Positions 156 through 26,038 of a DNA stretch of 35,135 nucleotides are shown piece after piece; the first letter of the stretch is position 1, and every line of letters starts with the position of its first letter. The stretch comes from Sphingomonadaceae bacterium (lineage in GTDB: Bacteria; Pseudomonadota; Alphaproteobacteria; Sphingomonadales; Sphingomonadaceae). Position numbers and translations under genes: made by a program. The notes beneath the pieces are model-generated. The model ran no database searches. It saw only the letters and a list, made by a program, of their open reading frames with translations, and had not been told where the DNA came from. The stretch covers positions 1 through 35,135 of the forward strand of contig JAFAZF010000082.1 in the NCBI GenBank assembly GCA_019239915.1, given 5' to 3'.

Positions 156-181
156 GGACCGCACGAGCGGTTCGTGATACC

Positions 182-215: not shown

Positions 216-253
216 TGCCGTCGCAGAGCAGTTTCGATGGAGACACCGGAAAG

Positions 254-1687: not shown

Positions 1688-1689
1688 AG

Positions 1690-2106: not shown

Positions 2107-2138
2107 TGGAAACTCCTCTCCTGAAAGGACCTTTGACG

Positions 2139-3368: not shown

Positions 3369-3377
3369 CACCGTCCG

Positions 3378-4151: not shown

Positions 4152-4165
4152 CAACTCCCCTCCGC

Positions 4166-5353: not shown

Positions 5354-5375
5354 GGCATCCCCCGCCGATAACTAA

Positions 5376-5432
5376 TTCTTTATCCGGCTCATATTGCGTC
5401 AAAGCGGATTACGTCAACATTTATACCGCTTT
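5376..5432 (-). promoter_or_regulatory. AT-rich promoter/operator region before the sulfotransferase-SDR pair
   Basis: The 82-bp gap between the P450 stop and the sulfotransferase start is strikingly AT-rich for this window. On the plus strand it holds two similar 9-mers, TTGCGTCAA (5394-5402) and TTACGTCAA (5409-5417), 15 bp apart. A long inverted repeat, AAAGCGG (5401-5407) with CCGCTTT (5426-5432), surrounds the second. Read on the minus strand, TTGACG hexamers could serve as -35 elements. This suggests a regulated internal promoter, possibly a target of the neighbouring AsnC-type regulator, but that link is inference. Confidence 0.35.
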
Positions 5433-5435
5433 GTA

Positions 5436-6710: not shown

Positions 6711-6957
6711 CCCTCCTCGCCGACGTTGGATTCGCCGACTTCGTGCATAGAATGGCAGAGGCGATCTGCGCCGTCCTCCACAAATCTTCGCCAAAACCGG
6801 ATTCTCATGCAAGTGGCAGCGCAAACGGCCACGCAGCCCCGATAGCAGGTGCGGCGACTGCGACCATAATGAACCAGCCAGCGGCGGCGCAGCTCGTCTT
6901 GAACCGCCGCCGCTATGATATAGCAGGTCGATATCGGCCGGAGGGATCCCGCTTTCG

Positions 6958-7893: not shown

Positions 7894-7969
7894 TGGCCGG
7901 TTCGCTTAGCTGGGGCTATGTCGCACGGCTGCAGCTCGTTATCGGCAGCGTCATGTGGCAGCATGAGCG

Positions 7970-8098
7970 ATGACCTATCGGTCGCCAGCCTCGGGACGGC
8001 AGTTCGTGATCGTCGTGGCCGGCGGCGACGACCCGCTCGTCACCACCCTTGGAGGCACGATCATCGCCTGTCCGCCCACCACGGATCGGGGGCACTGA
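7970..8098 (+). pseudogene. Remnant of a PQQ-dependent dehydrogenase C-terminus
   Basis: A 42-codon frame begins MTYRSPASGRQFVIVVAGG and continues to a GGTIIACPP tail. This matches the closing pattern of membrane quinoprotein glucose/quinate-type dehydrogenases (P-M-T-Y...G-R-Q-Y-V-V-I-A-A-G-G...G-D-Y-V-I-A-Y-A-L-P). A stop codon lies two codons before the ATG, and nothing further upstream resembles the rest of an approximately 700-aa enzyme, so this is a leftover 3' end. It indicates a past deletion or rearrangement between the regulator and the glycoside hydrolase. The identification is from motif memory. Confidence 0.55.
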
Positions 8099-8104
8099 TG
8101 CGCC

Positions 8105-9604
8105 GTGCGCTTCCTCCTGCCGAAGGCGGCATCGTTCTCCGTGCATGACGTCCTGGCTGCGGAGCTCGATCCGCCGGCAATCGAAGACGGACGCGCGATC
8201 CCGCTGCAATGGATCTCGGTCGCGCCCGGCGCACCTTATTTCGTCGATGAGAATGGTCGCGACTGGACCCCGATCGGCCAGAACGACGCGATCAGCTGGC
8301 CGGAACTCGCCGGTCTGTTCCGGAGGCGCGATCTCGGCGCGGTCGAGCGCCATCTGCGCTGGCTGGCCGCGAACGGCGTTACTTGCCTGCGATTGATGCT
8401 CGAATATGCGCAGGTCCGGCACCGCTATTTCGAGCGCCCGGCCGGCCGCTTCGTGCCGGCGATGGTGCAGCTCTGGGACGATCTGTTCGCGCTCTGCGAG
8501 CGGGTCGGGCTGCGCATTCTGCTGACGCCGGTCGACACGTTCTGGACCTGGCTGCACTGGCGACATCATCCATGGAACAGCGCGAACGGTGGACCGCTCG
8601 ATCATCCCTCGCGGCTGCTGCTGTGTCGCGACATGCGGGCTGCGATCAAGGCGCGGCTGAGCTTCGCGGTACGGCGCTGGGGCGGATCCGGCGCGCTCTT
8701 CGCCTGGGATCTCTGGAACGAGATCCATCCCGCCCACGCGCTCGACAGTGCCGACTGCTTCGGCGAGTTCATCCACGATCTCTCGACCCATGTCCGCGGC
8801 CTCGAGCTGGAGCTCTACGGGCGCTCGCACCCGCAGACCGTCTCGCTGTTCGGGCCGGAGCTATGGCTGAAGCCGCATCTCGAATTGCGCGAGCCGATCT
8901 TCCGCCATCCCGATCTCGATTTCGCCAGCATCCACATCTACCGCGAGCGTTCGATCGACGATCCCCGCGATACCGTTGCGCCTGCGCTCGCAATGGGTCG
9001 GATCGTGCGTGAGTGCATCGCCGAAACGCCGATCGAACGGCCGTTCCTCGACACGGAGCACGGGCCGATCCACCGCTTCAAGGACAAGCGAAAGACGCTG
9101 CCGGAACCGTTCGACGACGAATATTTCCGGCACATGAGCTGGGCGCATCTCGCCTGCGGTGGCGTCGGCGGCGGCATGCGCTGGCCGAACCGGCATCCGC
9201 ATGTGCTGACGCCGGGGATGCGCCGTGCCCAGCGCGCCATGGCTGCGTTCCTGCCGCTCATCGACTGGAGTGACTTCCGGCGCGTCAGCGGCGATGAGAA
9301 TGTCCGCGCGCCGGGCTGGCATGTATTCGCCTGCCACGACGACCGTCAGGCGGTGGTCTGGATGCTGCGGCGCGGCGCCCGCGGCGCCGACGGCCGCCTC
9401 AGGCAAGATTTGCATCCGCGCCCCGCGCAGCTGCGACTGCCTCGCTTTGCCGGATGCGCAGTCGAGGTGACCGCCTTCGACACGGTGCGTGGGCATGTCA
9501 CGCATTGCTGGACTGCCGAGGTTCGTGGTCAGGAGCTCAGTCTTGACGACGCGCTGCCGCGGGCGGACTGCGCCTTCGCGATCCGCCGGCTGGATCATGG
9601 ATAG
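8105..9604 (+). CDS. Clan GH-A glycoside hydrolase (GH5-like cellulase/mannanase fold)
   Basis: The 499-aa product shows a TIM-barrel glycoside hydrolase pattern. The acid/base is in FAWDLWNEIHP (E206), preceded by VTCLRLMLEY (about 92-101), with SIHIYRER around 275-282. The probable nucleophile is E318 in FLDTEHG. The C-terminal 100 residues after PLIDWSDF form a small beta domain, as in many GH5/GH-A mannosidase-like proteins. No signal peptide is visible, so it is probably cytoplasmic and acts on short glycosides. The start is GTG at 8105; an in-frame stop lies just upstream at 8096-8098 and no good Shine-Dalgarno sequence is seen. The gene directly follows the dehydrogenase remnant. Family-level substrate prediction is not possible by eye. 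Confidence 0.75.
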   Translation: MRFLLPKAASFSVHDVLAAELDPPAIEDGRAIPLQWISVAPGAPYFVDENGRDWTPIGQNDAISWPELAGLFRRRDLGAVERHLRWLAANGVTCLRLMLEYAQVRHRYFERPAGRFVPAMVQLWDDLFALCERVGLRILLTPVDTFWTWLHWRHHPWNSANGGPLDHPSRLLLCRDMRAAIKARLSFAVRRWGGSGALFAWDLWNEIHPAHALDSADCFGEFIHDLSTHVRGLELELYGRSHPQTVSLFGPELWLKPHLELREPIFRHPDLDFASIHIYRERSIDDPRDTVAPALAMGRIVRECIAETPIERPFLDTEHGPIHRFKDKRKTLPEPFDDEYFRHMSWAHLACGGVGGGMRWPNRHPHVLTPGMRRAQRAMAAFLPLIDWSDFRRVSGDENVRAPGWHVFACHDDRQAVVWMLRRGARGADGRLRQDLHPRPAQLRLPRFAGCAVEVTAFDTVRGHVTHCWTAEVRGQELSLDDALPRADCAFAIRRLDHG

Positions 9605-9795
9605 GCAAAGGTTTCGCGTGCGCTGCAGCTAAACGCAGCCGCAAACTTCGATCATCATGCCAGCGGCGCGCGCGAACCTGCGCCGAGCCAATCTGCGCGT
9701 CCACTTACCCACCCGGCATGCGAGACCGCGCAGCCAGGACGATACCTGCGCCGCCTTCATGGCGCTCGGTATCGCTCGCTGATGTGCTGTCGTTG

Positions 9796-10386
9796 CTACG
9801 GTGCTGGCGTTTGGGTGCCGGTCGATGTGAAGAAGACGCCGCGCTCGCCGCCCGGAGGGCCGACATAGCGATCCATCTCTTCCTGGAAGCGCTGCGCGAG
9901 ATGGGCTTGGTGGCTTCCCGGCACCTGCGCCTGAAGCTCGCGAAACCAGTCGCTTTCCTCCTGATACATATGGTGAGTCACCGCGCCGCGGATATGCTCG
10001 AGCTTGTCGAGATAGTCGTGGCTCAGCGGGTCGAGATTCTCGAGTAGCGCCATCTGGATCTTGGTCATGGCCTGCTCTTCATAGGCCATGCCCGCGTGAG
10101 TCTTGTGCCCGCTGTCGGCAAGCGCGGGATAGAGGACCGACTCCTCGGCATTGGAATGTCCGGTCAGCAGCACCGCCAGCCGTTGCTGTGCGTCGCGGCG
10201 CGCCTCGGCACCCGTTGCCGACTTCACCGCCGCGAACGCTTCCTCGATCCGCTCATGATGATCGATCACCAGCGCGAACCAGCCACCAGCGGTGGCTTCC
10301 GCGCGGGCTCGTGCGCGCGCCTCCAACCGCGTCTCCTCGCTCTCCGGGGGCGTGACCGCGGCAATGACCTTGTCCAGGAACGACAT
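9796..10386 (-). CDS. Hemerythrin HHE-domain protein
   Basis: This 196-aa protein has the four-helix HHE pattern for a di-iron centre: VIDHHERIEEAF (H43/H44), LLTGHSNAEESVLYP (H77, E81/E82), AYEEQAMTKIQM (E103/E104) and VTHHMYQEESDWF (H138/H139, E143/E144). Such proteins bind or sense O2, NO or iron, or protect against reactive species. The N-terminal 30 residues are charged and helical, and the C-terminal 30 (GGERGVFFTSTGTQTPAP) look disordered. The ATG at 10386 follows GGGAGG on the minus strand. An FNR/FixK-type palindrome lies about 90 bp upstream, consistent with oxygen- or NO-responsive control. The gene stands alone next to an island boundary. Confidence 0.9.
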   Translation of the reverse strand: MSFLDKVIAAVTPPESEETRLEARARARAEATAGGWFALVIDHHERIEEAFAAVKSATGAEARRDAQQRLAVLLTGHSNAEESVLYPALADSGHKTHAGMAYEEQAMTKIQMALLENLDPLSHDYLDKLEHIRGAVTHHMYQEESDWFRELQAQVPGSHQAHLAQRFQEEMDRYVGPPGGERGVFFTSTGTQTPAP

Positions 10387-10486: not shown

Positions 10487-10626
10487 TCTAATGATGCTTG
10501 TTGATAGAAGTTGATCCTATATCAGCTTCACGCTTGGGTGGCAGCTACTCACTCACGATCCGCGCCAGGCGTCCAAGACAGCGGCATTCCAGCCGCCCCC
10601 GCGCAATCGGGACGTGCATCGAGAAA

Positions 10627-10670
10627 TGGTGCCGCTTGCGTGACTCGAACACGCGACCCTCACATTACGA
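10627..10670 (-). repeat. Partial tRNA-Thr copy (attachment-site remnant of a genomic island)
   Basis: These 44 bases match the 3' part of the tRNA-Thr gene at 19714-19757 with one mismatch (A at 10662 against G at 19749), in the same orientation. The match runs from the anticodon loop through the TPsiC arm and acceptor stem to the encoded CCA, then stops sharply. It lacks the 5' half and cannot be a functional tRNA. Repeats reaching from the anticodon loop to the tRNA 3' end are the classic product of integration by tyrosine recombinases. Confidence 0.85.
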
Positions 10671-11075
10671 TGGCCTGTGACGCGCGGGGTTATGCCACTG
10701 ATTTGCATCGGCTTTTTGGGGCATCTCGATGGTTTTTTTCCCAGATGTCCCACGCCCTCCCCAACCGGCGGGGCGCCGTCGTTCGGGCACGTCGGAGCTT
10801 ACGTGCTTTCGCCGGACGTGCCCTCGGCGAGATGACCTGCGCTATACCTGCGAGGCATGAGCCGGCGACACCATTTGCGAGCCGCGTCCAACCCCGAAAG
10901 TGGGACTTAGCTGCCCGTTACCTTTGAATCGCGATCGCGATAATGTCGCTATTCGACGAGACTATACGCAAACACTATGCGGATCGTCCGATGTCGCTCT
11001 CGATAGGCTACGCGCTCCGATCCTAATCCGCTCCCGAAAGTGCGCCGGTCCGTAGGCGCGCTTGGAGACGCGGTG
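10671..11075. other. Gene-less left end of the island, containing the kdp promoter region
   Basis: About 400 bp without a convincing gene. Open frames here have no recognisable motif and no good ribosome binding site. The stretch nearest kdp (about 10925-11000) is richer in A/T. It contains a possible weak promoter, TTCGAC then CTATGC with a 17-base spacer (about 10952-10980). A KdpE-binding element is expected somewhere here but I cannot point to one reliably. Confidence 0.4.
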
Positions 11076-11159
11076 ATGCAGGATCTGCTCTGGGTAGCGA
11101 TCATGGCGGGACTGGTTGCGGCGACGCTCGGCTATGTCCGGCTGTGCGACAATGCGTGA
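11076..11159 (+). CDS. Small membrane peptide upstream of kdpF
   Basis: A 27-aa frame starts at ATG 11076, seven bases after GGAGA. It encodes one hydrophobic helix (LLWVAIMAGLVAATLGYV) followed by the short tail RLCDNA. It lies 10 bp before kdpF in the same direction and is too short for most gene callers. Similar tiny membrane peptides, ending in a conserved-looking R-L-C-D motif, occur before kdpF in other alphaproteobacteria as I recall. A structural or assembly role in the Kdp complex is plausible but unproven. Confidence 0.65.
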   Translation: MQDLLWVAIMAGLVAATLGYVRLCDNA

Positions 11160-11169
11160 GGCGGGCGGG

Positions 11170-11259
11170 ATGACGCTCGATCTCTGGCTCGCCGGCGGGA
11201 CCGCGATCGCCCTGCTCCTCTATCTCGTGGCGGTGCTCGTCCGCCCCGAGCGGTTCTGA
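11170..11259 (+). CDS. kdpF: KdpF, small subunit of the K+-transporting ATPase
   Basis: This 29-aa single-span membrane peptide ([20 protein letters not shown], then a tail ending VRPERF) has the length, position and closing R/K-P-E-x-F motif of KdpF. KdpF packs against KdpA and stabilises the KdpFABC pump. The start ATG at 11170 follows GCGGGCGGG. Its stop codon overlaps the GAGGAGG ribosome binding site of kdpA, so translation of the two is probably coupled. Confidence 0.85.
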
Positions 11260-11269
11260 GGAGGCAGCG

Positions 11270-12988
11270 ATGACGCTTCAGGGCTGGATCCTGATCTCCG
11301 TGTTTGTCGGCATGCTGCTCGCGCTGACCAAGCCCACGGGCGCGTGGCTGTTCGCGCTCTACGAGGGCCGCCCCACGCTGCTCCATGCCGTGATCGGCCC
11401 GGTCGAGACCGGCTTCTATCGGCTCGCCGGTATCGACCCCAGCGAGGAACAGGGCTGGCGCCGCTACGCCATGCACATGCTGATCTTCAACGCGATCTTG
11501 ATGCTGTTCACCTACGCGGTGCTGCGGCTGCAGGCGTTCCTGCCGTGGAACCAGCAGCATCTCGCCAACCTGCCCGAGCATCTCGCGGCCAACACCGCGA
11601 TCAGCTTCACCACCAACACCAATTGGCAGAGCTATTCGGGCGAATCGACGATGTCGAACCTCAGCCAGATGCTCGGGCTGACGATCCACAACTTCCTCTC
11701 GGCCGCGACCGGCATCGCGCTCGCCTTCGCGCTATTTCGCGGCTTCGCGCGGCGCCCCTCTCCCGACAAGGCACCGGCTACGATCGGAAACTTCTGGGCG
11801 GATGCCACGCGCATCACGCTCTACCTGCTGCTGCCGATCTCGATCGCCTATGCGCTGGTCCTGATCGCGAGCGGCGTGCCGCAGACACTCGCGGCGACGG
11901 TCGACCTCCATACGCTCGAGGGCGCCAGGCAGACGCTCGCGGTCGGGCCGGTCGCGTCCCAGGAGGCGATCAAGATGCTCGGCACGAATGGCGGCGGCTT
12001 TTTCAACGCGAACAGCGCGCATCCGTTCGAGAACCCGACCGCGCTGACAAACCTCGTCGAGATGCTGTCGATCTTCCTGATCGGCTTCGGCCTGACGTGG
12101 ACGTTCGGCAGGGCAGTCGGCAACACCCGCCAGGGCTGGGCGATCCTGTCGGCCATGGTGCTGATCTTCCTGGCCGGTGTCGCGCTCTGCTATGCGCAGG
12201 AGGCGGCGGGCAATCCGGTGCTCCACCACCTCGGCGTGGCCGGGCCCAACATGGAGGGCAAGGAGGTGCGCTTCGGTGCCGCCGCTTCGGCGTTGTTCGC
12301 GGTCGTCACCACGGCGGCATCGTGCGGCGCGGTCAATGCGATGCATGACAGCTTCACCGCGCTCGGCGGCCTGGTCCCGCTGTTCAACATCCAGCTTGGC
12401 GAGGTCGTCGTCGGCGGTGTCGGGGCGGGCATCTACGGCTTCCTGCTGTTCGCGATCCTCGCAGTGTTCGTCGCCGGACTGATGGTCGGCCGGACGCCCG
12501 AATATGTCGGCAAGAAGATCGAGACGCGCGAGGTCAAGCTCGCGGTGCTGGCGATCGCGGTGCTGCCGCTCGTCATCCTCGGCTTCACGTCGCTGTCCTG
12601 CGTGCTGCAGCAGGGGCTGGCGGGGCCGCTCAACAAGGGGCCGCACGGCTTCGCGGAGATCCTCTACGCCTTCACCAGCGCGGTGGGGAACAACGGCTCC
12701 GCCTTCGCGGGGCTCACCGCGGCCACGCCCTATTATGACGGCATGCTGGGTATGGCGATGTGGATCGGCCGCTTCTTCATCATCGTGCCGATGCTGGCGA
12801 TCGCCGGCAGTCTCGCCGCCAAGAAATACACGCCGACGAGCGCGGGCAGCTTCCCGACGACCGGACCGCTCTGGGTGGGGCTGCTCGTCGGCGTCGTGCT
12901 GATCCTCGGCGGCCTCACTTTCCTGCCAAGCCTCGCGCTCGGCCCCGTCGCCGATCATCTCGCGATGATCCGCGGCCAGCTTTTCTGA
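11270..12988 (+). CDS. kdpA: KdpA, K+-binding channel-like subunit of KdpFABC
   Basis: This 572-aa polytopic inner-membrane protein belongs to the superfamily of K+ transporters. The characteristic [20 protein letters not shown] lies near residues 236-255, at one of the four pore-loop selectivity filters. [16 protein letters not shown] (about 114-129) and [14 protein letters not shown] (near 470) give others. KdpA selects K+ and passes it to the path operated by KdpB. The ATG at 11270 has GAGGAGG five bases upstream. Length is in the usual KdpA range. It sits between kdpF and kdpB with short gaps, first of the large pump genes. Confidence 0.98.
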
Positions 12989-13002
12989 TCGAGGCGCCGG
13001 AC

Positions 13003-15033
<2,031 letters not shown>

Positions 15034-15044
15034 GGAGCACTCCG

Positions 15045-15626
15045 ATGGGCAACGACTTCATCACCGCGCTGCGTCCCGCGATCGTCATGACGATCCTGTT
15101 CGCGCTATTGCTCGGGATTGGCTACCCTCTCACCATGACCGGCATCGGCCAGGCGATCTTCCCGGAACAGGCGAACGGTAGCCTCGTGCGCGATGCCAAC
15201 GGCTCGGTGATCGGGTCGACCGTGATCGGCGAGAGCTTCACCAGCGACCGCTATTTCGACACGCGCCCCTCGGCGGCGGGCAAGGGCTATGACGGGCTTG
15301 CTTCCTCGGGCTCGAACTACGGCCCGACCAGCCGGGCGCTCGCCGATCGGGTCAGGGCCGATGTCGCCAAGGCTCACAACGCAGGCATCTCGACGATTCC
15401 CGCAGATCTCGTCACCGCCAGCGGCTCGGGGCTCGATCCCGACCTGTCGCCGGCGGCGGCTTACGCGCAGGCACCGCGCGTGGCGCGCGTTCGCCGCCTC
15501 TCCGTGACACAAGTGCGCGCGCTGATCGGCGCGCAGACCGCGCGCCCGATCGCCGGCTTCCTCGGCGAGGAGCGCGTCAACGTCCTGGCACTCAACCTCG
15601 CGCTGGATCGGCTGGGGACGCATTGA
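15045..15626 (+). CDS. kdpC: KdpC, accessory subunit of KdpFABC
   Basis: The 193-aa product has one N-terminal membrane helix (LRPAIVMTILFALLLGIGYPL) and a periplasmic domain. It carries the family signatures ANGSLV, IGESF, YFDTRPSAAG and SGSNYGPTS. The C-terminal half has the usual PADLVTASGSGLDPD and APRVARVR blocks. KdpC associates with KdpA/KdpB and supports ATP affinity of the pump. ATG 15045 is preceded by TGAGGAG, which overlaps the kdpB stop. Its own stop overlaps the kdpD start. Confidence 0.97.
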   Translation: MGNDFITALRPAIVMTILFALLLGIGYPLTMTGIGQAIFPEQANGSLVRDANGSVIGSTVIGESFTSDRYFDTRPSAAGKGYDGLASSGSNYGPTSRALADRVRADVAKAHNAGISTIPADLVTASGSGLDPDLSPAAAYAQAPRVARVRRLSVTQVRALIGAQTARPIAGFLGEERVNVLALNLALDRLGTH

Positions 15627-18295
15627 CGGAAAGAGACCGCCCCGCACCCGAAGCGTTCCTGCGTGAAGCGGCGCAGGAAGGACGCGGCCGGCTCAAGATA
15701 TTCCTCGGCGCGGCTCCCGGCGTCGGCAAGACCTACGAGATGCTGCGCGAGGCGGCGTCACGCGCTGCGGCCGGCCTCGACGTCGTCGTCGGTGTCGTCG
15801 AGACGCACGGCCGCGCCGAAACCGAAGCGCTAACGCGCAGCCTCGCCATCCTGCCGCGCCGGCAGATCGACTATGAAGGCCGGACGCTGGCCGAGATGGA
15901 CCTCGACGCGCTGATCGGGCGCCGCCCTGCGCTCGCGCTCGTCGACGAACTCGCCCACAGTAATGCGCCGGGCAGCCGTCACCCGAAGCGTTACCAGGAT
16001 GTCGAAGAACTGCTCGCGGCCGGCATCGACGTCTATTCGACGATCAACATCCAGCACATTGAAAGCCTCAACGACGTCGTCGCCTCGTTCACGCGGGTCC
16101 GCGTCCGCGAGACGGTGCCCGATTCCATCCTCGAGCAAGCCGAGATCGAGGTCGTCGATATTCCGCCGGACGAGCTGATCGAGCGACTGAAAGAGGGCAA
16201 GGTCTATCTCCCGGAGGAAGCGACGCGGGCGCTCGGCCATTTCTTCTCGAAGTCGAACCTGTCGGCGCTGCGCGAGCTGGCGCTGCGCCACGCGGCGCAG
16301 GCGGTCGACGCGCAAATGCTCGACTACCTGCGCGATCAGGCTCTCGGCGGGGCGTGGGGCGCAAGCGAGCGGATCGTCGTCGCGGTCAGTGAGCTCGCCG
16401 GCGCCGACGGCCTCGTCCGCGCCGCCAAGCGCATGGCCGACGCGCTGCACGCATCGTGGACCGCGCTGCATATCGAGACCGCGCGGACGCGCCAGCTCGG
16501 CCCCGAGGAGCACAAGCATATCGCCAGCGTGCTGGCGCTCGCGACGCAGCTAGGCGCGCGGGTCGCGACCGTGCCCGCCGAGAATGTCATCGAGGGGTTG
16601 AAGGCGTTCGCGGTCGAGGCGCGCGCGACGCAGCTGATCGTCGGAAAATCGACGCGCTCGAAATGGTTCGAGTTGCGCCACGGCTCGGTGGTCGACAGGC
16701 TGGTCCGCGAGACGCCGGGCATCGCGGTGCACGTGCTGCCGTTCGGGCCGGGGCCCGATACCGCCGCCCGCCCTGCGCGGCCTGGGCCGCGCGCCGGCTG
16801 GGGCAGACCCGCCGCTTATTTCTACACGACGCTGATGGTCGCGGCGGTCTCCGCGCTCGGCACCACCGTCCTCGACTTCCTCGCGATCGGCAACATCGCG
16901 CTGCTCTATCTGCTGCCCGTGATGGCTGCCGCGAGCCTGTTCGGCCTGCGCCCCGGCCTCTATGCCGGGCTCGCCTCCAGCCTCGCCTACAACTTCTTCT
17001 TCCTGCCGCCGGTGGGCACGCTGTCGGTCTCCAATCCCGAGAACGTCGTCTCGATCTTCGTGCTGATCGGCGTGGCGATCGTCACCAGCCAGTTGACGTC
17101 ACGCGTCCGCGTTCAGGCCGATCTGGCGGGGGCAAGCGCGCGGACCAACGCCGCGCTCGCCGGCTACTTGCGCCAGCTGACCGCGCTCAACAATGCCGAC
17201 GCGGTCGCCCACGCCGCTTGCGCCGAGATCGCGCGGTTGCTGTCGCTGCGTGTGATCCTGCTTGAAAAAGGCGCTGCCGGCCTCACCGTCGAGGCGGCGA
17301 GCGAGCCCGGCGCGCGGCTGGAGACGATGGAGACCGCTGCCGCGCAATGGGTCTATGATCACGGCCAGCCCGCCGGTCGCGGCACCGGCACGTTGACGGC
17401 GTCGGACTGGCAGTTCCAGCCGCTGCGCGCCGGCGATCACATCCTTGCGGTGATGGGCCTGGCACGCGACGACGGTGCCGATCCGGTGCGCGCTGACCAG
17501 TTGACGTTGCTTGGCAGCCTCGTCGAGCAGACAGCGCTCGCGCTGGAACGGCTGCGGCTCGAGGCCGAGATGCGCGACGTTGACGCGGTCCGCGAACGCG
17601 ATCGGCTTCGTGCGGCTTTGCTCTCGTCGGTCAGTCACGATCTGCGCACGCCGTTGACCTCGGTGCTCGCCGCAACCGCCGAGCTCCGCCGCCGGAGCGA
17701 CGATCCGCTGCTCGACACGATCGAAAGCGAGGCGACGCGACTCAACCGCTTCGTCGCCAATCTCCTCGACATGGCCCGTGTCGAGGCGGGGGCGCTGCGA
17801 CTCAACATCGAGCCGGTCGACCTGACCGACGCGGTCGCGGGCGCCGTCCACGACACGCGCCGATCGCTGGAGGGGCATGCGATCCAGCTGGATGTATCGC
17901 CCGAACTGCCGCTGGTCGCGGTCGACCCGCAGCTTTTCCACCACGTTCTGCTCAATCTGCTCGACAATGCGGGCCGTTATGGCGCGCCCGATACCCCGAT
18001 CATGATCCGCGCGAGCCGTACATATGGCGCGCTGCGGCTCGCGGTGATCGACGAAGGCAGCGGCCTGCCACCGGGCCGCGAGGCGGAGGTCTTTGAGACC
18101 TTCCGCCGGCTCGATGGCTCGGATCGCGCAATCGGCGGCACCGGGCTCGGGCTTGCCATCGTCAAGGGCTTCGCCGAGGCGATGGGGATGAGTGCGCGCG
18201 CCGAGAACCGCGACGATGGCCGTGGCGCTGTCTTCAGCCTGCATTTCCCTGAACGGTTACTGGTCCGCGCCTCCAGCCCGGACGCCGACGCATGA
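15623..18295 (+). CDS. kdpD: KdpD, K+/turgor-responsive sensor histidine kinase
   Basis: The 890-aa product begins with the KdpD N-terminal domain: Walker A GAAPGVGKT (29-37) and Walker B-like ALVDELAHSN. A USP-like region follows (about 250-375), then a four-helix DUF4118 membrane block (about 395-495) and a GAF-like region. The kinase core has its phospho-acceptor H672 in SVSHDLRTPLTS, an N box LLNLLDNAGRYG, and G boxes DEGSGLPPG and GGTGLGLAIVKG. It phosphorylates KdpE when K+ is limiting. The start is TTG at 15623, overlapping the kdpC stop by three bases (TTGA), which implies translational coupling. Confidence 0.97.
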   Translation: MTERDRPAPEAFLREAAQEGRGRLKIFLGAAPGVGKTYEMLREAASRAAAGLDVVVGVVETHGRAETEALTRSLAILPRRQIDYEGRTLAEMDLDALIGRRPALALVDELAHSNAPGSRHPKRYQDVEELLAAGIDVYSTINIQHIESLNDVVASFTRVRVRETVPDSILEQAEIEVVDIPPDELIERLKEGKVYLPEEATRALGHFFSKSNLSALRELALRHAAQAVDAQMLDYLRDQALGGAWGASERIVVAVSELAGADGLVRAAKRMADALHASWTALHIETARTRQLGPEEHKHIASVLALATQLGARVATVPAENVIEGLKAFAVEARATQLIVGKSTRSKWFELRHGSVVDRLVRETPGIAVHVLPFGPGPDTAARPARPGPRAGWGRPAAYFYTTLMVAAVSALGTTVLDFLAIGNIALLYLLPVMAAASLFGLRPGLYAGLASSLAYNFFFLPPVGTLSVSNPENVVSIFVLIGVAIVTSQLTSRVRVQADLAGASARTNAALAGYLRQLTALNNADAVAHAACAEIARLLSLRVILLEKGAAGLTVEAASEPGARLETMETAAAQWVYDHGQPAGRGTGTLTASDWQFQPLRAGDHILAVMGLARDDGADPVRADQLTLLGSLVEQTALALERLRLEAEMRDVDAVRERDRLRAALLSSVSHDLRTPLTSVLAATAELRRRSDDPLLDTIESEATRLNRFVANLLDMARVEAGALRLNIEPVDLTDAVAGAVHDTRRSLEGHAIQLDVSPELPLVAVDPQLFHHVLLNLLDNAGRYGAPDTPIMIRASRTYGALRLAVIDEGSGLPPGREAEVFETFRRLDGSDRAIGGTGLGLAIVKGFAEAMGMSARAENRDDGRGAVFSLHFPERLLVRASSPDADA

Positions 18296-18984
18296 GCGGG
18301 CAGCGCATCCTTGTCGTCGACGACGATCTTCATATCCGCCGGCTGCTAGAGAGCACACTCTCGCGGGCCGGCTATGAGACGATTGAAGCGACCAGCGCCA
18401 CTGAGGCGCTGGCACAGGCGCGCCATGCCCACCCCGACGCGATCCTGCTCGATCTCGGCCTGCCCGATCGCGACGGATTGGAAATCATCCAGCTGCTGCG
18501 GGAGACATCCGCGGCACCTATCCTCATCATCTCCGCGCGCGATGCGACCGACCAGAAGGTCGCGGCGCTTGATCTCGGTGCGCACGACTATGTCGAGAAG
18601 CCGTTCGACACCGAGGAACTGCTCGCCCGCGTGCGCGCCAGCTTGCGGGACACGTTGATCGCGCAGGGCGCGGCCGCGACGCTGATCGCCGGCGACATCG
18701 AGATCGATCTCGTCAACCGTCGCGTGGTTCGCGCAGACGATGAGGTGCATCTGACACGCAAGGAATATGCGGTGTTGGAGCAGCTTGCGAGGTATCCCGG
18801 CCGCGTCGTCACGCACAAGCAGGCGCTCGAGGCCGGCTGGCCGCACAGCTACGACCGCCGCACCGAGTATCTGCGCATCGTCATCCGCAACCTGCGCCAG
18901 AAGCTGGAGATCGACCCCGCGCGGCCGGCACTCATCTTGAATGAGCTGGGCGTGGGCTATCGTCTGTTCGCCGGTCTGCTCTAA
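18292..18984 (+). CDS. kdpE: KdpE, OmpR-family response regulator
   Basis: This 230-aa response regulator has an acidic pocket (VVDDD, 8-12), phospho-acceptor D54 in ILLDLGLPD, and K103 in VEKPF. A winged-helix C-terminal domain follows, with LTRKEYAVLEQLARYPGRVVTHK and YLRIVIRNLRQKLE. The ATG overlaps the kdpD stop (ATGA). It activates the kdp promoter when phosphorylated by KdpD, so the locus encodes both the pump and its control. It is the last kdp gene; its stop overlaps that of a possible 27-aa minus-strand frame. Confidence 0.97.
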   Translation: MSGQRILVVDDDLHIRRLLESTLSRAGYETIEATSATEALAQARHAHPDAILLDLGLPDRDGLEIIQLLRETSAAPILIISARDATDQKVAALDLGAHDYVEKPFDTEELLARVRASLRDTLIAQGAAATLIAGDIEIDLVNRRVVRADDEVHLTRKEYAVLEQLARYPGRVVTHKQALEAGWPHSYDRRTEYLRIVIRNLRQKLEIDPARPALILNELGVGYRLFAGLL

Positions 18985-19064
18985 CGGCCGCCTTCGGTGC
19001 CCGGCTCGACGGCGGACGGGACCGCGATGTCCGCGGCCGACACGGGCGTGGCAAGCTTTGTCAT
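18981..19064 (-). CDS. Possible 27-aa peptide convergent with kdpE
   Basis: A short frame starts at ATG 19064 with GAGGAG seven bases upstream and reads MTKLATPVSAADIAVPSAVE, then PGTEGGR. Its stop overlaps the kdpE stop. It has no membrane helix and no motif I recognise. The strong ribosome binding site is the only support, so it may be chance. Confidence 0.2.
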   Translation of the reverse strand: MTKLATPVSAADIAVPSAVEPGTEGGR

Positions 19065-19190
19065 CCTGTTCTCCTCGAGCGGCGCAGCGGCCGCGGAAGA
19101 AGTAAGTCGAAGAAAGCCCGGAGCGGACAGGGCCCACAGAGGGCAACGATCCGAGCGGGGCTGAGGCAAGCGCCACGCCTTGCCGAGCTT

Positions 19191-19597
19191 GTGCGTGGCG
19201 GCGCTGGCCTCGACGCTAAACTCGATTTGTCGGCCCCTGACACTGCCTCATACTCGGCCGAGTTGCCTACGAATGCTATCGAGCAAGCGAAGGCGGAGAT
19301 CGAGCGTCGCCGGGAACGAGCACAGCGCTTCCCGACGGCATTTTCTCAGATCCGGCTTGGTCGCTCTTGCTCGACCTCTTTGCCGCGGAAGCCGAGCGGC
19401 GCAGGGTTACAATCACGGACGCCTGCATCGCGACAGGGCTATCAATGACAAGCGCGCTCCGTCAGCTCAAATATCTTGAGGCACGCAATCTACTCGAGCG
19501 CCGGTCTGATCCTGAAGATGCGCGCCGATCCTTCGCCCGACTATCTCGCAACGCGCGAGAGAGAATGATCGCTGCGCTCGGTTCGTTCACGCGCTAG
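19191..19597 (+). pseudogene. Frameshifted MarR-like winged-helix regulator (C-terminal part)
   Basis: Two adjoining frames make one coherent sequence. The first ends in AKAEIERRRERAQRF; the second continues PDGIFSDPAWSLLLDLFAAE and then DACIATGLSMTSALRQLKYLE, ERRSDPEDARR and FARLSRNARE. This is the winged-helix region of a MarR-like protein common in sphingomonads. The join at about 19331 needs a one-base step back, so a base in the CCC run appears lost, by mutation or sequencing error. The segment before 19260 has no clear similarity and no good start, so the 5' part is also degraded. It sits at the tRNA-proximal end of the island. Confidence 0.6.
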
Positions 19598-19713
19598 CGC
19601 GCCAAGTAAGCACGGCTCACCAGATCAAAGCGGATGTGATCGCTGCGTGATTGCTAGAGTTCAAGATTACCGCAGATTTCCGGCTCGAATTGACCCTGAG
19701 GCATTGAAAAGTA

Positions 19714-19789
19714 TGGTGCCGCTTGCGTGACTCGAACACGCGACCCTCGCATTACGAATGCGATGCTCTACCGGCTGAGCTAAAGCGGC
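19714..19789 (-). tRNA. tRNA-Thr (anticodon CGT), CCA encoded
   Basis: On the minus strand the 76 bases fold as a full cloverleaf. The acceptor is GCCGCTT with AAGCGGC, the D arm is GCTC...GAGC, the anticodon stem is TCGCA/TGCGA with loop TTCGTAA (anticodon CGT, reading ACG), and the T arm is GCGTG-TTCGAGT-CACGC. The discriminator is A and CCA is encoded. Its 3' half is the attachment site used by the neighbouring island. Confidence 0.97.
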
Positions 19790-19946
19790 CCGGAGATGGG
19801 CGCGCCGATAGCAGCGGGCGCCGCTCGCGGCAAGCGCCGACGGTCGGCGCGAGCCGTGTCGCCTCCATGCGCTTTACCAAGCGTCAACCATGGTCTGGCA
19901 GAGTGGCGGTCGCGTGGCGCATTTCGCGCCCGCTCGAGGTGCGCGC

Positions 19947-21227
19947 ATGGATAGCTTGCGGTCGGTCGGCGACAGGGAAGACGATCTCGGCGAGGAGACG
20001 CCCGGCATCGAGGCGCCGCCCTCGATCGGCAGCGACGAGCGCCGCATGCAGGTGCGCGCCTATAATCATTGGGTGTCGCTGCTCGGCGGCCGCGCATACC
20101 CCTCGCTCGACGATCTCGATCCCGCCGGCATCCCCGACTTCGGTCCGCACGGCGTGCTGCTCGATTTCGGGCGCGATCCGGAGCGGCCTACGATCGCGTA
20201 TCTCGGCGCCGAGCTTGGCGACGAGTGCGGCCACGATCATGCCATCCGCGGCGTCGCCGACGTCCCCGCCGGCTCGCTGCTGTCGCGCCTCACCGATCAT
20301 TATGCCGAGATCCTCGCCAACCGCGCGCCGATCGGCTTCGAGGCCGAGTTCGTCAACCGGCGCGGCTTCAACACCCTCTATCGCGGCATCCTGATGCCCT
20401 TCTCCTCGGACGATGTGACGATCGACTTCATCTACGGCGTCATCAACTGGAAGGAGGTCGCCGACGAGGCGATCAGCGCCGGCATCGAGGCCGAGGTCCG
20501 CGAGGCGCTGGGCAGCCTCGCCGCCCCCGCCCTCACCTCCTGGGCCGATGGGCCGAGCCGCGTGCCGTTCGACGATGTGGTGCCCGACCGGCCAGTGCGC
20601 GATGCGACGGTCATGCCCTCGCCCGTTCGGCTGGCGGTCGAGGCCGGCCTGGCGGACCGCCTCGCCGCGGCGCGCGCGGGTGCGGAATGCGCTTGCCACG
20701 GCGCCGATCGCCCGGCGCTCAACCACGCGCTCGCGCTCGCCTACGAGTTCGCGATCGCGAGCGAAGCGCTCCCCGACGATCTCGCCGAGTTGGTCGCTGA
20801 GGCGGGAGTCGGCGGACACGAGGACGCGCCGATGCTCGCCGTCGCTGAACTCGTCTTCGGACCCGATTGCACGCCCCAGCTGCTCGGCGACTATGCCGCC
20901 GCGCTCGCCTACGGCCGCCGGCTCGAGCTCGCCCCGAGCGGCTTCGCAATGCTGCTCGACGAGAGCCCGAGCGGCTATGGCGCGCTCGCCGAGGCCTATC
21001 GCGCGGAGCATTCCGCGCCGGCCGCACCGCCGCCGACCGCGGCCGAGCTCGCGCGAGAGAAGCTGCGCACCGCCGCGCCGAGCGCACAGATCACGCTCCA
21101 AGGCGTCGACGACGAACTCGTCCTGCTGGTCGCGCGTCGCGAACCGGATGGCGGCTATGCGGTTGTCGCGACGCTCGCCGAAGATCGCACGCTGCTCGAT
21201 CGCGCCTTGCGTTCGCTGGCCGGCTAA
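19947..21227 (+). CDS. PAS-like domain protein linked to glutamate dehydrogenase
   Basis: The product is 426 aa from ATG 19947, which has GAGGTG six bases upstream; an earlier ATG at 19890 lacks a ribosome binding site. Residues about 30-185 resemble the PAS_5-type domain: YNHWVSLLGGRAYPSLDDLD, FGPHGVLLDF, PTIAYLGAELG, SLLSRLTDHYAEILANRAPIGFEAEF and LYRGILMPFSSD. This family occurs in alphaproteobacteria, often with sensory or regulatory function. The rest is Ala/Pro-rich and low-complexity, with no catalytic motif I recognise. It lies 152 bp upstream of the NAD-glutamate dehydrogenase gene in the same direction, so a link to nitrogen/carbon control is plausible but unproven. Confidence 0.7.
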   Translation: MDSLRSVGDREDDLGEETPGIEAPPSIGSDERRMQVRAYNHWVSLLGGRAYPSLDDLDPAGIPDFGPHGVLLDFGRDPERPTIAYLGAELGDECGHDHAIRGVADVPAGSLLSRLTDHYAEILANRAPIGFEAEFVNRRGFNTLYRGILMPFSSDDVTIDFIYGVINWKEVADEAISAGIEAEVREALGSLAAPALTSWADGPSRVPFDDVVPDRPVRDATVMPSPVRLAVEAGLADRLAAARAGAECACHGADRPALNHALALAYEFAIASEALPDDLAELVAEAGVGGHEDAPMLAVAELVFGPDCTPQLLGDYAAALAYGRRLELAPSGFAMLLDESPSGYGALAEAYRAEHSAPAAPPPTAAELAREKLRTAAPSAQITLQGVDDELVLLVARREPDGGYAVVATLAEDRTLLDRALRSLAG

Positions 21228-21379: not shown

Positions 21380-24300
21380 ATGCAGGCTGCCAGTACCCGT
21401 CAGCGCGCCGGCGCCGACGCCGCGTTCGTTTCCCGCCTCGCCGACATACTCGTCGCCGGCGCACTTCCCGGCGAACTCGACGGCTTTTCCCAGGATGACC
21501 GGCTGGAGGCGGCGCGGTTCGTCGCGGCCGCCGCCGGCGAGCGCGCCCCGGGAACCGCGATGGTCGCGCTCCAATCCCTCCGGGGCGAGGCCGGGCGGCG
21601 GCGAATGCGGCTCGCTGTCGTCAACGACGACATGCCGTTCCTCGTCGATTCGGTCGCGGGTGCGATCGCCGCGCGCGGGCTCGCGGTCTACCGGCTGCTC
21701 CACCCGATCCTCGCGGTCCGCCGCGATGCCGGAGGCGTCCTGACCGGCTTGCTGGATCCAACCGAGGCGGCCGGCGAACGCCGCGAATCCCTCCTCTATT
21801 TCGAGATCGAGCGCGCCGACGCGCGCACCCGCCGCGCCCTTGCCGCCGAGATCGAGGCGATCCTCGCCGACGTTCGCGTCGCCGTCGCTGACTGGCCGCG
21901 CATGCAGGCGGCGATGCGTGACGATGCCGACGCTCTGCCCGATGGCGAGGGCGCGGCGCTGCTGCGCTGGCTGCTCGACGGCAACATGACGCTGCTCGGC
22001 TGTGAGATCGAAGGCCGCGACGGCGTGCAGCGCGCGTCGCTCGGCATCCTGCGCAACCGCGGCGCGGCGCTCTGGTGCGAGGACGAACGCCGCGAGGCCC
22101 TGGCACGGTTCGCCGCGGGCGCGGAGGCGCCGCTGGTCCTCAAGGCCGACCGGATCGCGACCGTGCACCGCCGTGTGCCCATGGATCTCGTCGTGCTGCC
22201 GCACCGGACCGGCGATACGCTCGACCGCGTCACCATCTATTGCGGGCTGTGGACCTCGGCGGCGCTCGCGGCGAGGCCCGATCGCGTGCCGGTGCTGCGC
22301 GCGCGCCTCGGCGCGCTGCAGGAGAAATGGGGCTTCGCTCCCGCGAGCCACGCCGCCAAGGCGCTGCACCACGTCCTGTCCGATTTGCCCCACGATCTGC
22401 TCGTCGCCTTCCCCGGCACTACCCTGGAAGCCGTCGCGCTCACCGCCATGGGGCTGATCGACCGTCCCCGGCCGAAGCTGCTGCTCGCGCCCGGCACGCT
22501 CGGCCGCAAGCTCTTCGCATTCGTGTGGCTGCCGCGCGACGAGCTTACCACCGCGCGGCGGGTGCAGATCGGCACGATGCTGGAAGAGGCCTCGGCGGGC
22601 AGCGTCTCGAGCTGGTCGAGCGAGATCGGCGACGGCGAGCTCGCGATGCTGCGCTACACGCTCGATGTCGGCGCTGACATGCCCGCAATTGATGCCGGTG
22701 CGCTCGACCGGCGGCTCGAGCAGATGGTGCGCGGCTGGGCACCGGCGCTGGAGTCGGCTCTGGCCGAGCTCATCGGCCCGGCGCGCGCGACCCGGCTGAC
22801 GCTCACCTATGGTCACGCCTTCCCGCCGCAGTATCGCGCCCGCTACGACACGCTCGCCGCCGCGCAGGACGTGCTGCGGCTGGCAAGCCTCGGCGAGGAA
22901 CAGGCGCGCGCGGCGAGACTCTACCAGGCAGAGGGCGACGCCGCCGATCGCCTGCGCCTCAAAATTTACCGCGCCGATGCCATCGTGCCGCTGAGCGACG
23001 TCGTGCCCGTACTCGAGAATTTCGGCTTCCGCGTCATCGCCGAGATGCCGACTGCGCTCGGCGAAGATCTCGGCTACATTCACGAATTCGCGCTCGAGAC
23101 CAGCGACGCGCAGGGCCTGTTCGCGCGCGCCGCGGTGATCGAGGCGACGATCGCCGCCGTGCTCGAAGGGCGCGCCGAGAACGATGCGTTCAACGCGCTG
23201 CTCGTCTCGGTCGGGCTGGAGCCCCGTGCGCTCGTCCTGTTCCGCGCCTGGTTCCGGTATCTGCGGCAGACCGGCATGAGCTGCGGCCTCGCCACCGTCA
23301 CCGAGGCGTTGCGCCGCGCACCCGACGTCGCACGCGCGCTGATCGAGCTGTTCGACGCGCGGCTCGACCCCGTGCGCGCCAAGCGTGCGGAAGCGCTCGG
23401 GCAAAGCGCGCGCGACGCGATCGACGCCGGACTCCTCAAGGTGACCGCGATCGACGACGACCGCATCCTGCGCCGGCTGCGCGCGGTGATCGAAGCGATC
23501 CTGCGGACCAACGCGTTCGCACCCGCCGGCGTGGCGGCGCTCGCATTCAAGCTCGACAGCGCCGCCCTGCCCAACCTGCCCGCGCCGCGGCCGTGGCGCG
23601 AGATCTGGGTCTACAGTCCCCGCGTCGAAGGCATCCATCTGCGCGGCGGCCCGATCGCCCGCGGCGGCATCCGCTGGTCCGACCGGCGCGACGACTTCCG
23701 CACCGAGATCCTCGGGCTGATGAAGGCGCAGGTGGTCAAGAACGCGGTGATCGTGCCGACAGGCGCCAAGGGCGGCTTCTATCCCAAGACACTGCCGCTA
23801 CCCACCGCCGGCCGCGCCGCGTGGCTCGTCGAGGGCACCGAAAGCTACCGCATCTTCATCCGCGCGCTGCTCTCCGTCACGGACAACATCGTCGGCGACA
23901 AGATCGTCCATCCCGATCGCACGGTGGTCCATGATGGCGACGACCCTTACTTCGTCGTCGCCGCCGACAAGGGCACCGCGAGCTTCTCGGACATTGCGAA
24001 CGAGATCGCCACGACGCGCGATTTCTGGCTGGGCGACGCCTTCGCTTCGGGTGGATCGCAGGGCTACGACCACAAGGCGATGGGCATCACCGCGCGCGGC
24101 GCCTGGATCTCGGTCACCCGGCACTTCGCGGAGCTGGGAGTCGACCTGCAGAAGGATCCGGTCTCCGTCGTCGGCTGCGGCGACATGTCTGGCGATGTAT
24201 TCGGCAACGGCATGCTGCTTTCGAAGAGCCTCCGCCTGATCGCGGCCTTCGATCATCGCCACATCTTCCTCGACCCCGATCCCGACACGGCGAAGAGCTG

Positions 24301-26038
24301 GGTCGAGCGCAAGCGGCTGTTCGATCTGCCGACCTCCTCCTGGGCCGACTATGATCCCCAGCTGATCTCGACAGGCGGTGGCATCCATCCGCGCACGCAG
24401 AAGGAGATCCTTCTTTCCGGCGAGATACGCGCGTCACTTGGCATCCGAGCGGAGGCACTCGACCCCTCCGCACTTATAGCGGCAATCCTCAAGGCGCCGG
24501 TCGATCTGCTTTGGTTCGGCGGCATCGGCACCTATGTGAAGGGACCGGCCGAAAGCCACCTCGACGTCGGCGACCCTGCGAACGACGCCCATCGCATCAA
24601 CGGCGATCAGGTCGGCGCGCGCGTGATCGGCGAAGGCGCAAATCTCGGCGTGACGCAAGCGGGTCGTATCGCATACTCTCTCAAGGGCGGCCGCAGCAAC
24701 ACGGATTTCATAGACAATTCTGCCGGCGTCGATTGTTCGGACAACGAGGTCAACATCAAGATCCCGCTCAATCGCGAGATTGTGGAAGGCCGCCTCACTT
24801 TCGGCGAGCGCAACGCGCTGCTCGGCGAAATGACCGATGAGGTCGCCGCGCTCGTGCTTGAGGACAATCGCCTGCAGACGCTCGCGCTCTCCATCGCGGA
24901 ACGCGGTGGTGCGGGCGCGCTGCCGAGCCAGCTCCGCGTCGTCGAGATGCTCGAGGCATCGGGCCGCCTCGATCGCGAGGTCGAGGGACTGGGCAGCAAC
25001 GAGGCGCTGCTCCGCCGCGTCACCGATGCACAGGGCCTCACCCGTCCCGAGCTCGCGGTGATCCTCGCCCACGGTAAGCTCGCGCTACAGGAGGCTATCG
25101 AGAACGCCGCGCTGCCCGACGACCCGACGCTGCTGCCGATCCTCCACCAGGCCTTTCCACGCACGATGCTCGCGCGGCACGAAGCGGCGATCGACACGCA
25201 CCGGCTGCGCCGGCAGGTCATCGCCACCGAGATCGCCAACATCGTCGTCAATCGGCTCGGCCCGACGACGCCGTTCGAGCTCGCCGAGGAGGAAGGCGCC
25301 AGCCTCGCCCAGGTCGCCGCGGCCTATATCGTGGTCGAGCGGCTGTTTGAGCTCGGCGAGCTCTGGCGAACGATCGAGACGGCGCCGCTCGCCGAGCCCG
25401 ACCGGCTGTCGCTGCTGGATCGCACGGCCGGCGTCATCCGGCTGCACATGGCGGACCTGCTGCGCGCGCCGGAAGGCGATGCGGCGCCCGGCGAGGCGGT
25501 CGCGGCGCTGCGCGATGGCGTCACCGCGCTCGACGCCGCCGCCGAGCGGCTGCTGCGCGCCGAGGCCCGCGCCGAGGCCGCAAGCCTGCGTGGGCGGCTC
25601 GAGCAGACCAGCGCGCCGGGGTCGCTCGTCGACCGCATCGTGCGCCTCTATGAGCTCGATGGCGCGATCGGGACCGCATCGCTGAGCCGCCGGCTCGGCG
25701 TCGCCGAGGTCGAGACGACCGCTGCCTACACCCGGCTCGGCGAGGCGCTGGGCCTCGATTGGGCGAAGGCGGCGGCGCTCGGCCTCGCCTCATCGGATCC
25801 GTGGGAGCGGCTGCTCGCCGCCGGCCTCGCGCGCGACTTCGAGCAGCTGCGGCTCGATTTCCTCGCCCGCGTCGGCGGGAGAGATCCCGGCGCCGCCGTC
25901 GACGAGTGGCTGGAGGCGCAGCAGGCGCGCGTCGCGCAGTTCGTCGCGCTCGTAACACGTGCCCGCGCCAGCGCCGCGCCGACGGCCGCGATGCTCGCCC
26001 AGATCACCGCGCAGGCGCGGATATTGCTCGCGCGCTGA
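21380..26038 (+). CDS. gdhB: NAD-specific glutamate dehydrogenase, large (180-kDa) class
   Basis: This 1552-aa protein has the size of the large NAD-GDH class known from Streptomyces, Pseudomonas and Caulobacter. It has a long N-terminal regulatory region with ACT-like parts, then the central catalytic domain. That domain contains LRGGPIARGGIRWSDRRDDF, FRTEILGLMKAQ and VKNAVIVPTGAKGGF; the lysine of GAKGG is about residue 797. Later come the NAD-binding part (VVGCGDMSGDVFGNGML) and a helical C-terminal region. It oxidises glutamate to 2-oxoglutarate and ammonium for carbon use. The ATG at 21380 has a weak upstream GCAGGACG. The symbol is used loosely; gdhZ is also used for this class. Confidence 0.95.
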   Translation: MQAASTRQRAGADAAFVSRLADILVAGALPGELDGFSQDDRLEAARFVAAAAGERAPGTAMVALQSLRGEAGRRRMRLAVVNDDMPFLVDSVAGAIAARGLAVYRLLHPILAVRRDAGGVLTGLLDPTEAAGERRESLLYFEIERADARTRRALAAEIEAILADVRVAVADWPRMQAAMRDDADALPDGEGAALLRWLLDGNMTLLGCEIEGRDGVQRASLGILRNRGAALWCEDERREALARFAAGAEAPLVLKADRIATVHRRVPMDLVVLPHRTGDTLDRVTIYCGLWTSAALAARPDRVPVLRARLGALQEKWGFAPASHAAKALHHVLSDLPHDLLVAFPGTTLEAVALTAMGLIDRPRPKLLLAPGTLGRKLFAFVWLPRDELTTARRVQIGTMLEEASAGSVSSWSSEIGDGELAMLRYTLDVGADMPAIDAGALDRRLEQMVRGWAPALESALAELIGPARATRLTLTYGHAFPPQYRARYDTLAAAQDVLRLASLGEEQARAARLYQAEGDAADRLRLKIYRADAIVPLSDVVPVLENFGFRVIAEMPTALGEDLGYIHEFALETSDAQGLFARAAVIEATIAAVLEGRAENDAFNALLVSVGLEPRALVLFRAWFRYLRQTGMSCGLATVTEALRRAPDVARALIELFDARLDPVRAKRAEALGQSARDAIDAGLLKVTAIDDDRILRRLRAVIEAILRTNAFAPAGVAALAFKLDSAALPNLPAPRPWREIWVYSPRVEGIHLRGGPIARGGIRWSDRRDDFRTEILGLMKAQVVKNAVIVPTGAKGGFYPKTLPLPTAGRAAWLVEGTESYRIFIRALLSVTDNIVGDKIVHPDRTVVHDGDDPYFVVAADKGTASFSDIANEIATTRDFWLGDAFASGGSQGYDHKAMGITARGAWISVTRHFAELGVDLQKDPVSVVGCGDMSGDVFGNGMLLSKSLRLIAAFDHRHIFLDPDPDTAKSWVERKRLFDLPTSSWADYDPQLISTGGGIHPRTQKEILLSGEIRASLGIRAEALDPSALIAAILKAPVDLLWFGGIGTYVKGPAESHLDVGDPANDAHRINGDQVGARVIGEGANLGVTQAGRIAYSLKGGRSNTDFIDNSAGVDCSDNEVNIKIPLNREIVEGRLTFGERNALLGEMTDEVAALVLEDNRLQTLALSIAERGGAGALPSQLRVVEMLEASGRLDREVEGLGSNEALLRRVTDAQGLTRPELAVILAHGKLALQEAIENAALPDDPTLLPILHQAFPRTMLARHEAAIDTHRLRRQVIATEIANIVVNRLGPTTPFELAEEEGASLAQVAAAYIVVERLFELGELWRTIETAPLAEPDRLSLLDRTAGVIRLHMADLLRAPEGDAAPGEAVAALRDGVTALDAAAERLLRAEARAEAASLRGRLEQTSAPGSLVDRIVRLYELDGAIGTASLSRRLGVAEVETTAAYTRLGEALGLDWAKAAALGLASSDPWERLLAAGLARDFEQLRLDFLARVGGRDPGAAVDEWLEAQQARVAQFVALVTRARASAAPTAAMLAQITAQARILLAR

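What the first reader, a model, noticed from the sequence alone, without database searches (positions are those of the whole stretch)
10627..19789. A complete kdp potassium-pump locus lies in a tRNA-Thr island bounded by a 44-bp partial tRNA repeat
The left repeat copies the tRNA-Thr(CGT) gene from the anticodon loop to the encoded CCA with one mismatch, in the same orientation, then stops abruptly; the intact gene is 9,087 bp away. Everything between is kdp plus decayed sequence, with no integrase. This implies that high-affinity K+ uptake with its own sensor-regulator pair was acquired as a unit and then fixed by loss of the recombination gene.
Basis: partly seen in the sequence, partly recalled or inferred. 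Interest (0 to 1): 0.75.

Follow-up and report, generated by a model that had tools for sequence, protein, structure and literature searches.

The report
Potassium-pump island beside a tRNA gene
In this Sphingomonas-type bacterium a complete high-affinity potassium-uptake gene set sits between a tRNA-threonine gene and a broken copy of that gene's end, the footprint of a mobile DNA island that seems to have lost its integration enzyme; it is a good new example of a known kind of event.

Summary
A 45-nt direct repeat (10626-10670 / 19713-19757, one mismatch) copies tRNA-Thr(CGT) from the anticodon loop through CCA and occurs only twice in the genome. Between the copies lie intact kdpFABCDE and about 1.1 kb of decayed sequence with no integrase trace. 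The tRNA lies beside the PAS-type gene in all 9 congeners. Its 3' side is an integration hotspot: 31 of 59 distinct sites have a recombinase within 3 kb, against 0 of 40 control stretches. A congener carries another island there, with integrase and a 48-nt repeat of nearly the same extent. A Sphingomonas MAG carries a second, foreign kdpFABCDE behind an integrase at the same tRNA. The nearest relative by GDH has no kdpA or kdpD. Vertical descent of KdpD is rejected, hidden paralogy aside; KdpABC is unresolved. 'Fixed by loss of the integrase' is inference, and genes left of the fragment are accessory too. kdp on tRNA-integrated elements is already in print (A. caldus), so this is a new member of a known kind.

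The parts
10626..10670 (-). 3' fragment of tRNA-Thr(CGT), nt 33-77: distal att-like repeat
   Evidence: 45 nt, 1 mismatch to 19713-19757; only two copies in the genome
10671..11075 (.). non-coding or decayed stretch, no integrase trace
   Evidence: G+C 0.61; six-frame search
11076..11160 (+). 27-aa small ORF before kdpF, conserved before kdp in relatives
11170..11259 (+). kdpF
   Evidence: 29 aa; same small ORF before kdpA in relatives; name recalled
11270..12988 (+). kdpA
   Evidence: PF03814 E 1.4e-235
13003..15033 (+). kdpB
   Evidence: PF00122, PF00702; DKTGT and TGES motifs
15045..15626 (+). kdpC
   Evidence: PF02669 E 7e-69
15623..18295 (+). kdpD sensor kinase
   Evidence: PF02702 E 2.4e-95, HisKA, HATPase_c; H-box SVSHDLRTP
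18292..18984 (+). kdpE response regulator
   Evidence: PF00072, PF00486
19322..19597 (+). remnant of a MarR-type winged-helix gene in a decayed stretch
   Evidence: PF12802 E 5.5e-8; 42% over 74 aa to a place in L091
19714..19789 (-). intact tRNA-Thr(CGT), integration target
   Evidence: ARAGORN
19890..21227 (+).
   Evidence: homologue in 10 of 10 genus genomes; no Pfam family
21380..26038 (+). NAD-glutamate dehydrogenase, conserved core
   Evidence: PF05088

Best explanation
A relic integrative genomic island. A site-specific integrase recombined an element's copy of the tRNA-Thr(CGT) 3' half with the chromosomal gene, leaving the gene whole at one end and a 45-nt fragment at the other (shown: repeat, orientation, hotspot, related islands; inferred: the event itself). 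The surviving cargo is kdpFABC, a K+-importing P-type ATPase, with kdpDE, the sensor kinase and regulator expected to switch it on when K+ is scarce (function from family knowledge, not tested here). Integrase and other mobility genes have been deleted or eroded, so the segment is probably no longer mobile by itself (inferred). kdpDE came from outside the genus lineage (tree tests); kdpABC probably came with it, but its tree does not decide.
For: Repeat and its uniqueness. tRNA beside the PAS-type gene in 9 of 9 congeners. Hotspot 31 of 59 sites, control 0 of 40. Congener G005: integrase plus 48-nt repeat (tRNA nt 31-78) 7.3 kb away. Rhizobium phage RHph_N65 holds a 45-nt, 88.9% match to the same tRNA segment 0.8 kb from its integrase gene, without a whole tRNA there. 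G060: integrase and foreign second kdp at the same tRNA. G004, nearest by GDH, lacks KdpA and KdpD. Congener monophyly of KdpD rejected.
Against: No integrase or remnant. Two genes left of the fragment are not core. KdpABC origin unresolved. G+C of kdp not foreign. KdpD has two deep groups, so hidden paralogy with losses is not fully excluded. No distal repeat at the G060, G158 or G010 sites. The seeds of the hotspot count came partly from the same sites.
Confidence: 0.85

Rival explanations
1. The repeat marks an older, unrelated island at the tRNA; kdp entered that accessory region later, by homologous or illegitimate recombination or from the host's own former kdp locus, and did not ride in with the integrase.
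For: No integrase left to tie kdp to the repeat. kdp neighbourhoods differ among most congeners, so kdp moves by other means too. Sphingomonad plasmids carry linked kdp genes. The KdpABC tree does not exclude a genus origin.
Against: kdp fills nearly the whole interval between the repeats, and a kdp island with an integrase exists at this tRNA in G060.
Confidence: 0.12
2. kdp at this tRNA is ancestral in the genus and the repeat is a chance or ancient tRNA duplication.
For: None direct; KdpABC grouping with congeners is not rejected.
Against: None of KdpA, C, D, E was found in the 18-19 kb seen 3' of this tRNA in five congeners (part of the G001 stretch reads N). In the single-contig genome G006, kdpA and the PAS-type gene lie 1.15 Mb apart. 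In G003, G007, G008 and G009 they lie on different contigs and only 0.6-8.7 kb of the site is visible, so linkage across gaps is not excluded there. Repeat score 41 against control 10.
Confidence: 0.03

Closest known systems
kdp-bearing ICE.1 elements of Acidithiobacillus caldus (PMC3826726; passages read)
   Same: extra kdp operons on integrative elements that the authors describe as flanked by direct repeats, generally involving tRNA genes, with a repeat-adjacent integrase
   Different: those keep an integrase and are ICEs in an unrelated acidophile; here no integrase and no transfer genes are seen, and the repeat-bounded segment is only 9 kb
Second kdp system on type II SCCmec in some Staphylococcus aureus strains (PMC3610689; passages read)
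   Same: kdp as cargo of a mobile element
   Different: different element type and target (recalled); no tRNA repeat
pPDL2 of Sphingobium fuliginis, integrating at a tRNA-Ser 3' end (PMC3516476; passages read)
   Same: integrase-driven recombination at the 3' end of a sphingomonad tRNA gene, shown by experiment with a synthetic site
   Different: other tRNA, other cargo (organophosphate degradation)
kdp operons on sphingomonad plasmids (S. insulae NZ_CP048420.1, S. parapaucimobilis NZ_CP155753.1)
   Same: kdp with kdpD and a following response-regulator gene on accessory replicons
   Different: plasmid-borne; KdpD about 69% identical to the window's; not tRNA-bounded as far as the tables show

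Membership tests
tRNA-integrated genomic island | lies at the 3' end of a tRNA gene | tested here: met
tRNA-integrated genomic island | direct repeat of the tRNA 3' end at the far border, same orientation | tested here: met
   45 nt, 1 mismatch, two copies in the genome
tRNA-integrated genomic island | contents absent from the same site in relatives | tested here: met
   none of KdpA, C, D, E in 5 of 5 congeners with 18-19 kb visible; 4 congeners have shorter contigs
tRNA-integrated genomic island | cargo of foreign descent | tested here: inconclusive
   KdpD: genus grouping rejected; KdpABC: not resolved
functional ICE, IME or prophage-like island | integrase gene | tested here: not met
   none in 10671-11075 or 18985-19712, nor remnant; hence filed only as a relic
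functional ICE, IME or prophage-like island | excision and circular form | not testable with these tools
   needs PCR or reads
KdpFABC-KdpDE system | KdpA, KdpB and KdpC subunits, intact | tested here: met
KdpFABC-KdpDE system | KdpD sensor kinase and KdpE regulator adjacent | tested here: met
KdpFABC-KdpDE system | induced high-affinity K+ uptake at low K+ | not testable with these tools
   needs growth or transport assays

The most novel reading that the evidence does not exclude
tRNA-Thr(CGT) is a recurrent landing dock through which whole kdp pump-plus-regulator cassettes are exchanged among sphingomonads: the window, G060 and perhaps G010 (integrase at the tRNA, kdp about 36-44 kb 3' of it with a 38-aa integrase fragment beside kdpE) and G158 (kdp 27 kb 3' of it) would be separate arrivals, some later frozen by integrase loss.
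Probability: 0.3. Interest if true: 0.45.

Novelty: new member of a known kind. Interest (0 to 1): 0.35.

Why it matters
It is a clean, checkable case of an ion-homeostasis system with its own regulator moving as cargo and being kept after the mobile element's machinery has gone. It also marks tRNA-Thr(CGT), next to the glutamate dehydrogenase gene, as a strong integration hotspot in sphingomonads (31 of 59 sites). It changes no general view: kdp as mobile cargo is already in print.

Tried and rejected
Integrase remnants: first six-frame search printed only part of its rows; repeated in full with no integrase match; Pfam and PHROGs on ORFs there gave none. Distal repeats in G060, G158 and G010 over 58-80 kb: best 11, 12 and 13 against controls of 11, 12 and 10. 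kdp near tRNA-Ala, tRNA-Phe or tRNA-Pro in G005, G006, G008 and S. koreensis as further islands: no fragment above control level by more than 1, dropped. Foreign base composition: not seen. KdpABC as proof of transfer: unresolved, AU p 0.228 and 0.231. Family-wide count of kdp near GDH: KdpA is in 78 of 298 genomes, but the GDH place list was cut, so I compared the listed rows by eye and give no frequency. A plasmid hit to the tRNA segment (NZ_CP155751.1) lies beside a recombinase gene and a glutamate dehydrogenase gene, like an ordinary occupied site, and was not taken as an attP.

Rows left out: G010 and G038 from the careful trees (long branches); G008 from the KdpABC trees (kdpB and kdpC not on its contig); G001 from the careful KdpDE tree (no KdpE found beside its kdpD); G020 from the KdpD trees (no KdpD match kept); G070 from KdpD (identical to G069). 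Searches used a wrong frame or start for kdpB; corrected from then on.

Literature: six searches. I saw titles and starts of abstracts; none of these reports kdp at a sphingomonad tRNA. Passages only were read in PMC3610689, PMC7231039, PMC3516476 and PMC3826726. The remaining listed papers were not opened.

Full report
What is there. The window is one whole contig of an 85-contig genome. It holds one tRNA, tRNA-Thr(CGT), 19714-19789 on the minus strand. A 45-nt direct repeat joins its 3' half (19713-19757) to 10626-10670 with one mismatch. In tRNA numbering the fragment runs from nt 33, in the anticodon loop, through CCA. The match scores 41 against 10 for the reversed control, and the pattern occurs nowhere else in the genome. 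The tRNA points left, so its 3' end faces the interval, and the fragment lies at the far end in the same orientation: the geometry expected of integration into a tRNA 3' end.

Cargo. Between the repeats are a 27-aa conserved ORF, kdpF, kdpA, kdpB, kdpC, kdpD and kdpE, all open, and about 1.1 kb with little coding content. That sequence shows a MarR-type winged-helix remnant at 19322-19597 and no integrase trace: in 205 loci the two stretches gave two protein matches at E 0.05, one weak (E 0.029) and one for the MarR remnant (L091, E 8e-13); the best match to seven recombinase seeds was E 0.52.

The site in relatives. The tRNA lies next to the PAS-type gene in all 9 other genomes of the genus. 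By script tRNA-Thr(CGT) was found in 68 of 90 loci examined: 9 congener loci, 80 named GDH loci and the window. The tRNA's 3' side shares no common gene order. Of 59 distinct sites with at least 2 kb visible, 31 have a recombinase-like ORF within 3 kb, 28 of these starting within 300 nt of the tRNA; in 40 control stretches just downstream of GDH there is none. The seeds came partly from the same sites, and related species are not independent. Pfam or PHROGs confirmed all seven seeds as tyrosine-type or serine-type recombinases or integrases (one seed by its zinc-ribbon recombinase domain only). The window is one of the 28 sites without one.

Islands that explain the repeat. Of 66 sites with at least 100 nt of 3' side scanned, only the window and congener G005 show a long repeat of the tRNA 3' end (scores 41 and 40; next 21 and 13; reversed controls 6-11). 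G005's is 48 nt, tRNA nt 31-78, 7.3 kb away, with an integrase gene beside the tRNA. Rhizobium phage RHph_N65 carries a 45-nt, 88.9% match to the same segment 0.8 kb from its integrase gene, with one HNH gene between, and ARAGORN finds no whole tRNA there. So the extent of the repeat is what an integrase using this tRNA leaves. Three unannotated fecal phage records also match the segment, not followed up.

A parallel kdp island. In Sphingomonas MAG S1C273_SP108 (G060) the same tRNA is followed by a tyrosine integrase, a Gcw_chp-domain (TorF-like) gene and kdpFABCDE. That genome holds a second kdp elsewhere. The second copy falls with NFR04 and ATCC 31555 in the KdpABC and KdpD trees, as GDH does, while the tRNA-Thr copy falls with S. 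solaris, S. sanguinis and S. hylomeconis. This is good evidence that kdp has been delivered to this site horizontally. It is a MAG, so a contig error is a small risk; no distal repeat was found in 58 kb.

Descent of the window's kdp. KdpA occurs in 8 of 9 congeners and in 78 of 298 genomes of the family sample. Five congeners show 18-19 kb of the tRNA's 3' side without KdpA, C, D or E; four show only 0.6-8.7 kb. G004, nearest by GDH though with only 80% SH-aLRT support on one gene, has neither KdpA nor KdpD and no repeat (score 12, control 10). In six of the eight kdp-bearing congeners kdpD lies on another contig than kdpA or 200 kb away; G001 and G003 have them linked (in G008 the kdpA contig is short, so linkage is not excluded). 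The window's KdpD pairs with S. deserti (100/100; 100/99) inside a clade of eight whose only congener is G001. Holding window and congeners together is rejected (p-AU 7e-4; 2e-61 with the unlinked set), but KdpD has two deep groups and one distant G001 paralogue was included. Inside one group three further groupings, chosen after seeing the tree, are rejected as well (1e-7, 3e-4, 3e-9). For KdpABC the window is not resolved and the genus grouping is not rejected (0.228, 0.231).

Limits. Two genes just left of the fragment are accessory: ORF 8105-9604 is in 0 of 9 other congeners, and a close hemerythrin homologue (64%) is in 1 of 9, elsewhere. So 10626 may be a junction between two accessory segments rather than the border of the core. 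That an integrase was lost, and that this fixed kdp, is inference. G158 and G010 also have kdp 27 kb and about 36-44 kb 3' of tRNA-Thr; G010 has an integrase at the tRNA and a 38-aa integrase fragment beside kdpE; neither shows a repeat above control by more than 3.

Known context. kdp on integrative elements flanked by repeats generally involving tRNA genes is described in Acidithiobacillus caldus (PMC3826726), a second kdp system on type II SCCmec in some S. aureus (PMC3610689), horizontal entry of kdp proposed in Leptospirillum (PMC7231039), and integration at a sphingomonad tRNA-Ser 3' end by a plasmid integrase (PMC3516476); passages only were read. Sphingomonad plasmids carry linked kdp genes. 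The finding is a well-supported new example, not a new kind.

Noticed in passing
3' side of tRNA-Thr(CGT) in 31 of 59 sites, e.g. L034:16810-18132, L037:1599-2966, L035:17303-18370: Several unrelated recombinase families (tyrosine and serine) use the same tRNA gene; the site is a strong integration hotspot in sphingomonads.
   Followed up: partly
G001-G009: Most congeners keep kdpDE away from kdpABC, and five of them hold a different deep KdpD group; kdp neighbourhoods differ among most congeners.
   Followed up: partly
window 11076-11160: A 27-aa membrane-like ORF precedes kdpF here and before kdp in many relatives; unnamed small protein.
   Followed up: no
window 1-10386: The left part holds SnoaL, glyoxalase, SDR, sulfotransferase, cytochrome P450, AsnC-type regulator and hemerythrin genes; two tested genes are not shared at this site by congeners, so it may be another accessory block.
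   Followed up: partly
L071, +5982 to +6002 on the 3' side of tRNA-Thr: A 21-nt exact copy of the tRNA-Thr T-arm region lies about 400 nt from an integrase ORF (+6382 to +7734); possibly another island end.
   Followed up: no
MN988536.1, 11799-11843 (L211): Rhizobium phage RHph_N65 carries a 45-nt copy of the tRNA-Thr(CGT) 3' half near its integrase gene, a likely attP.
   Followed up: partly
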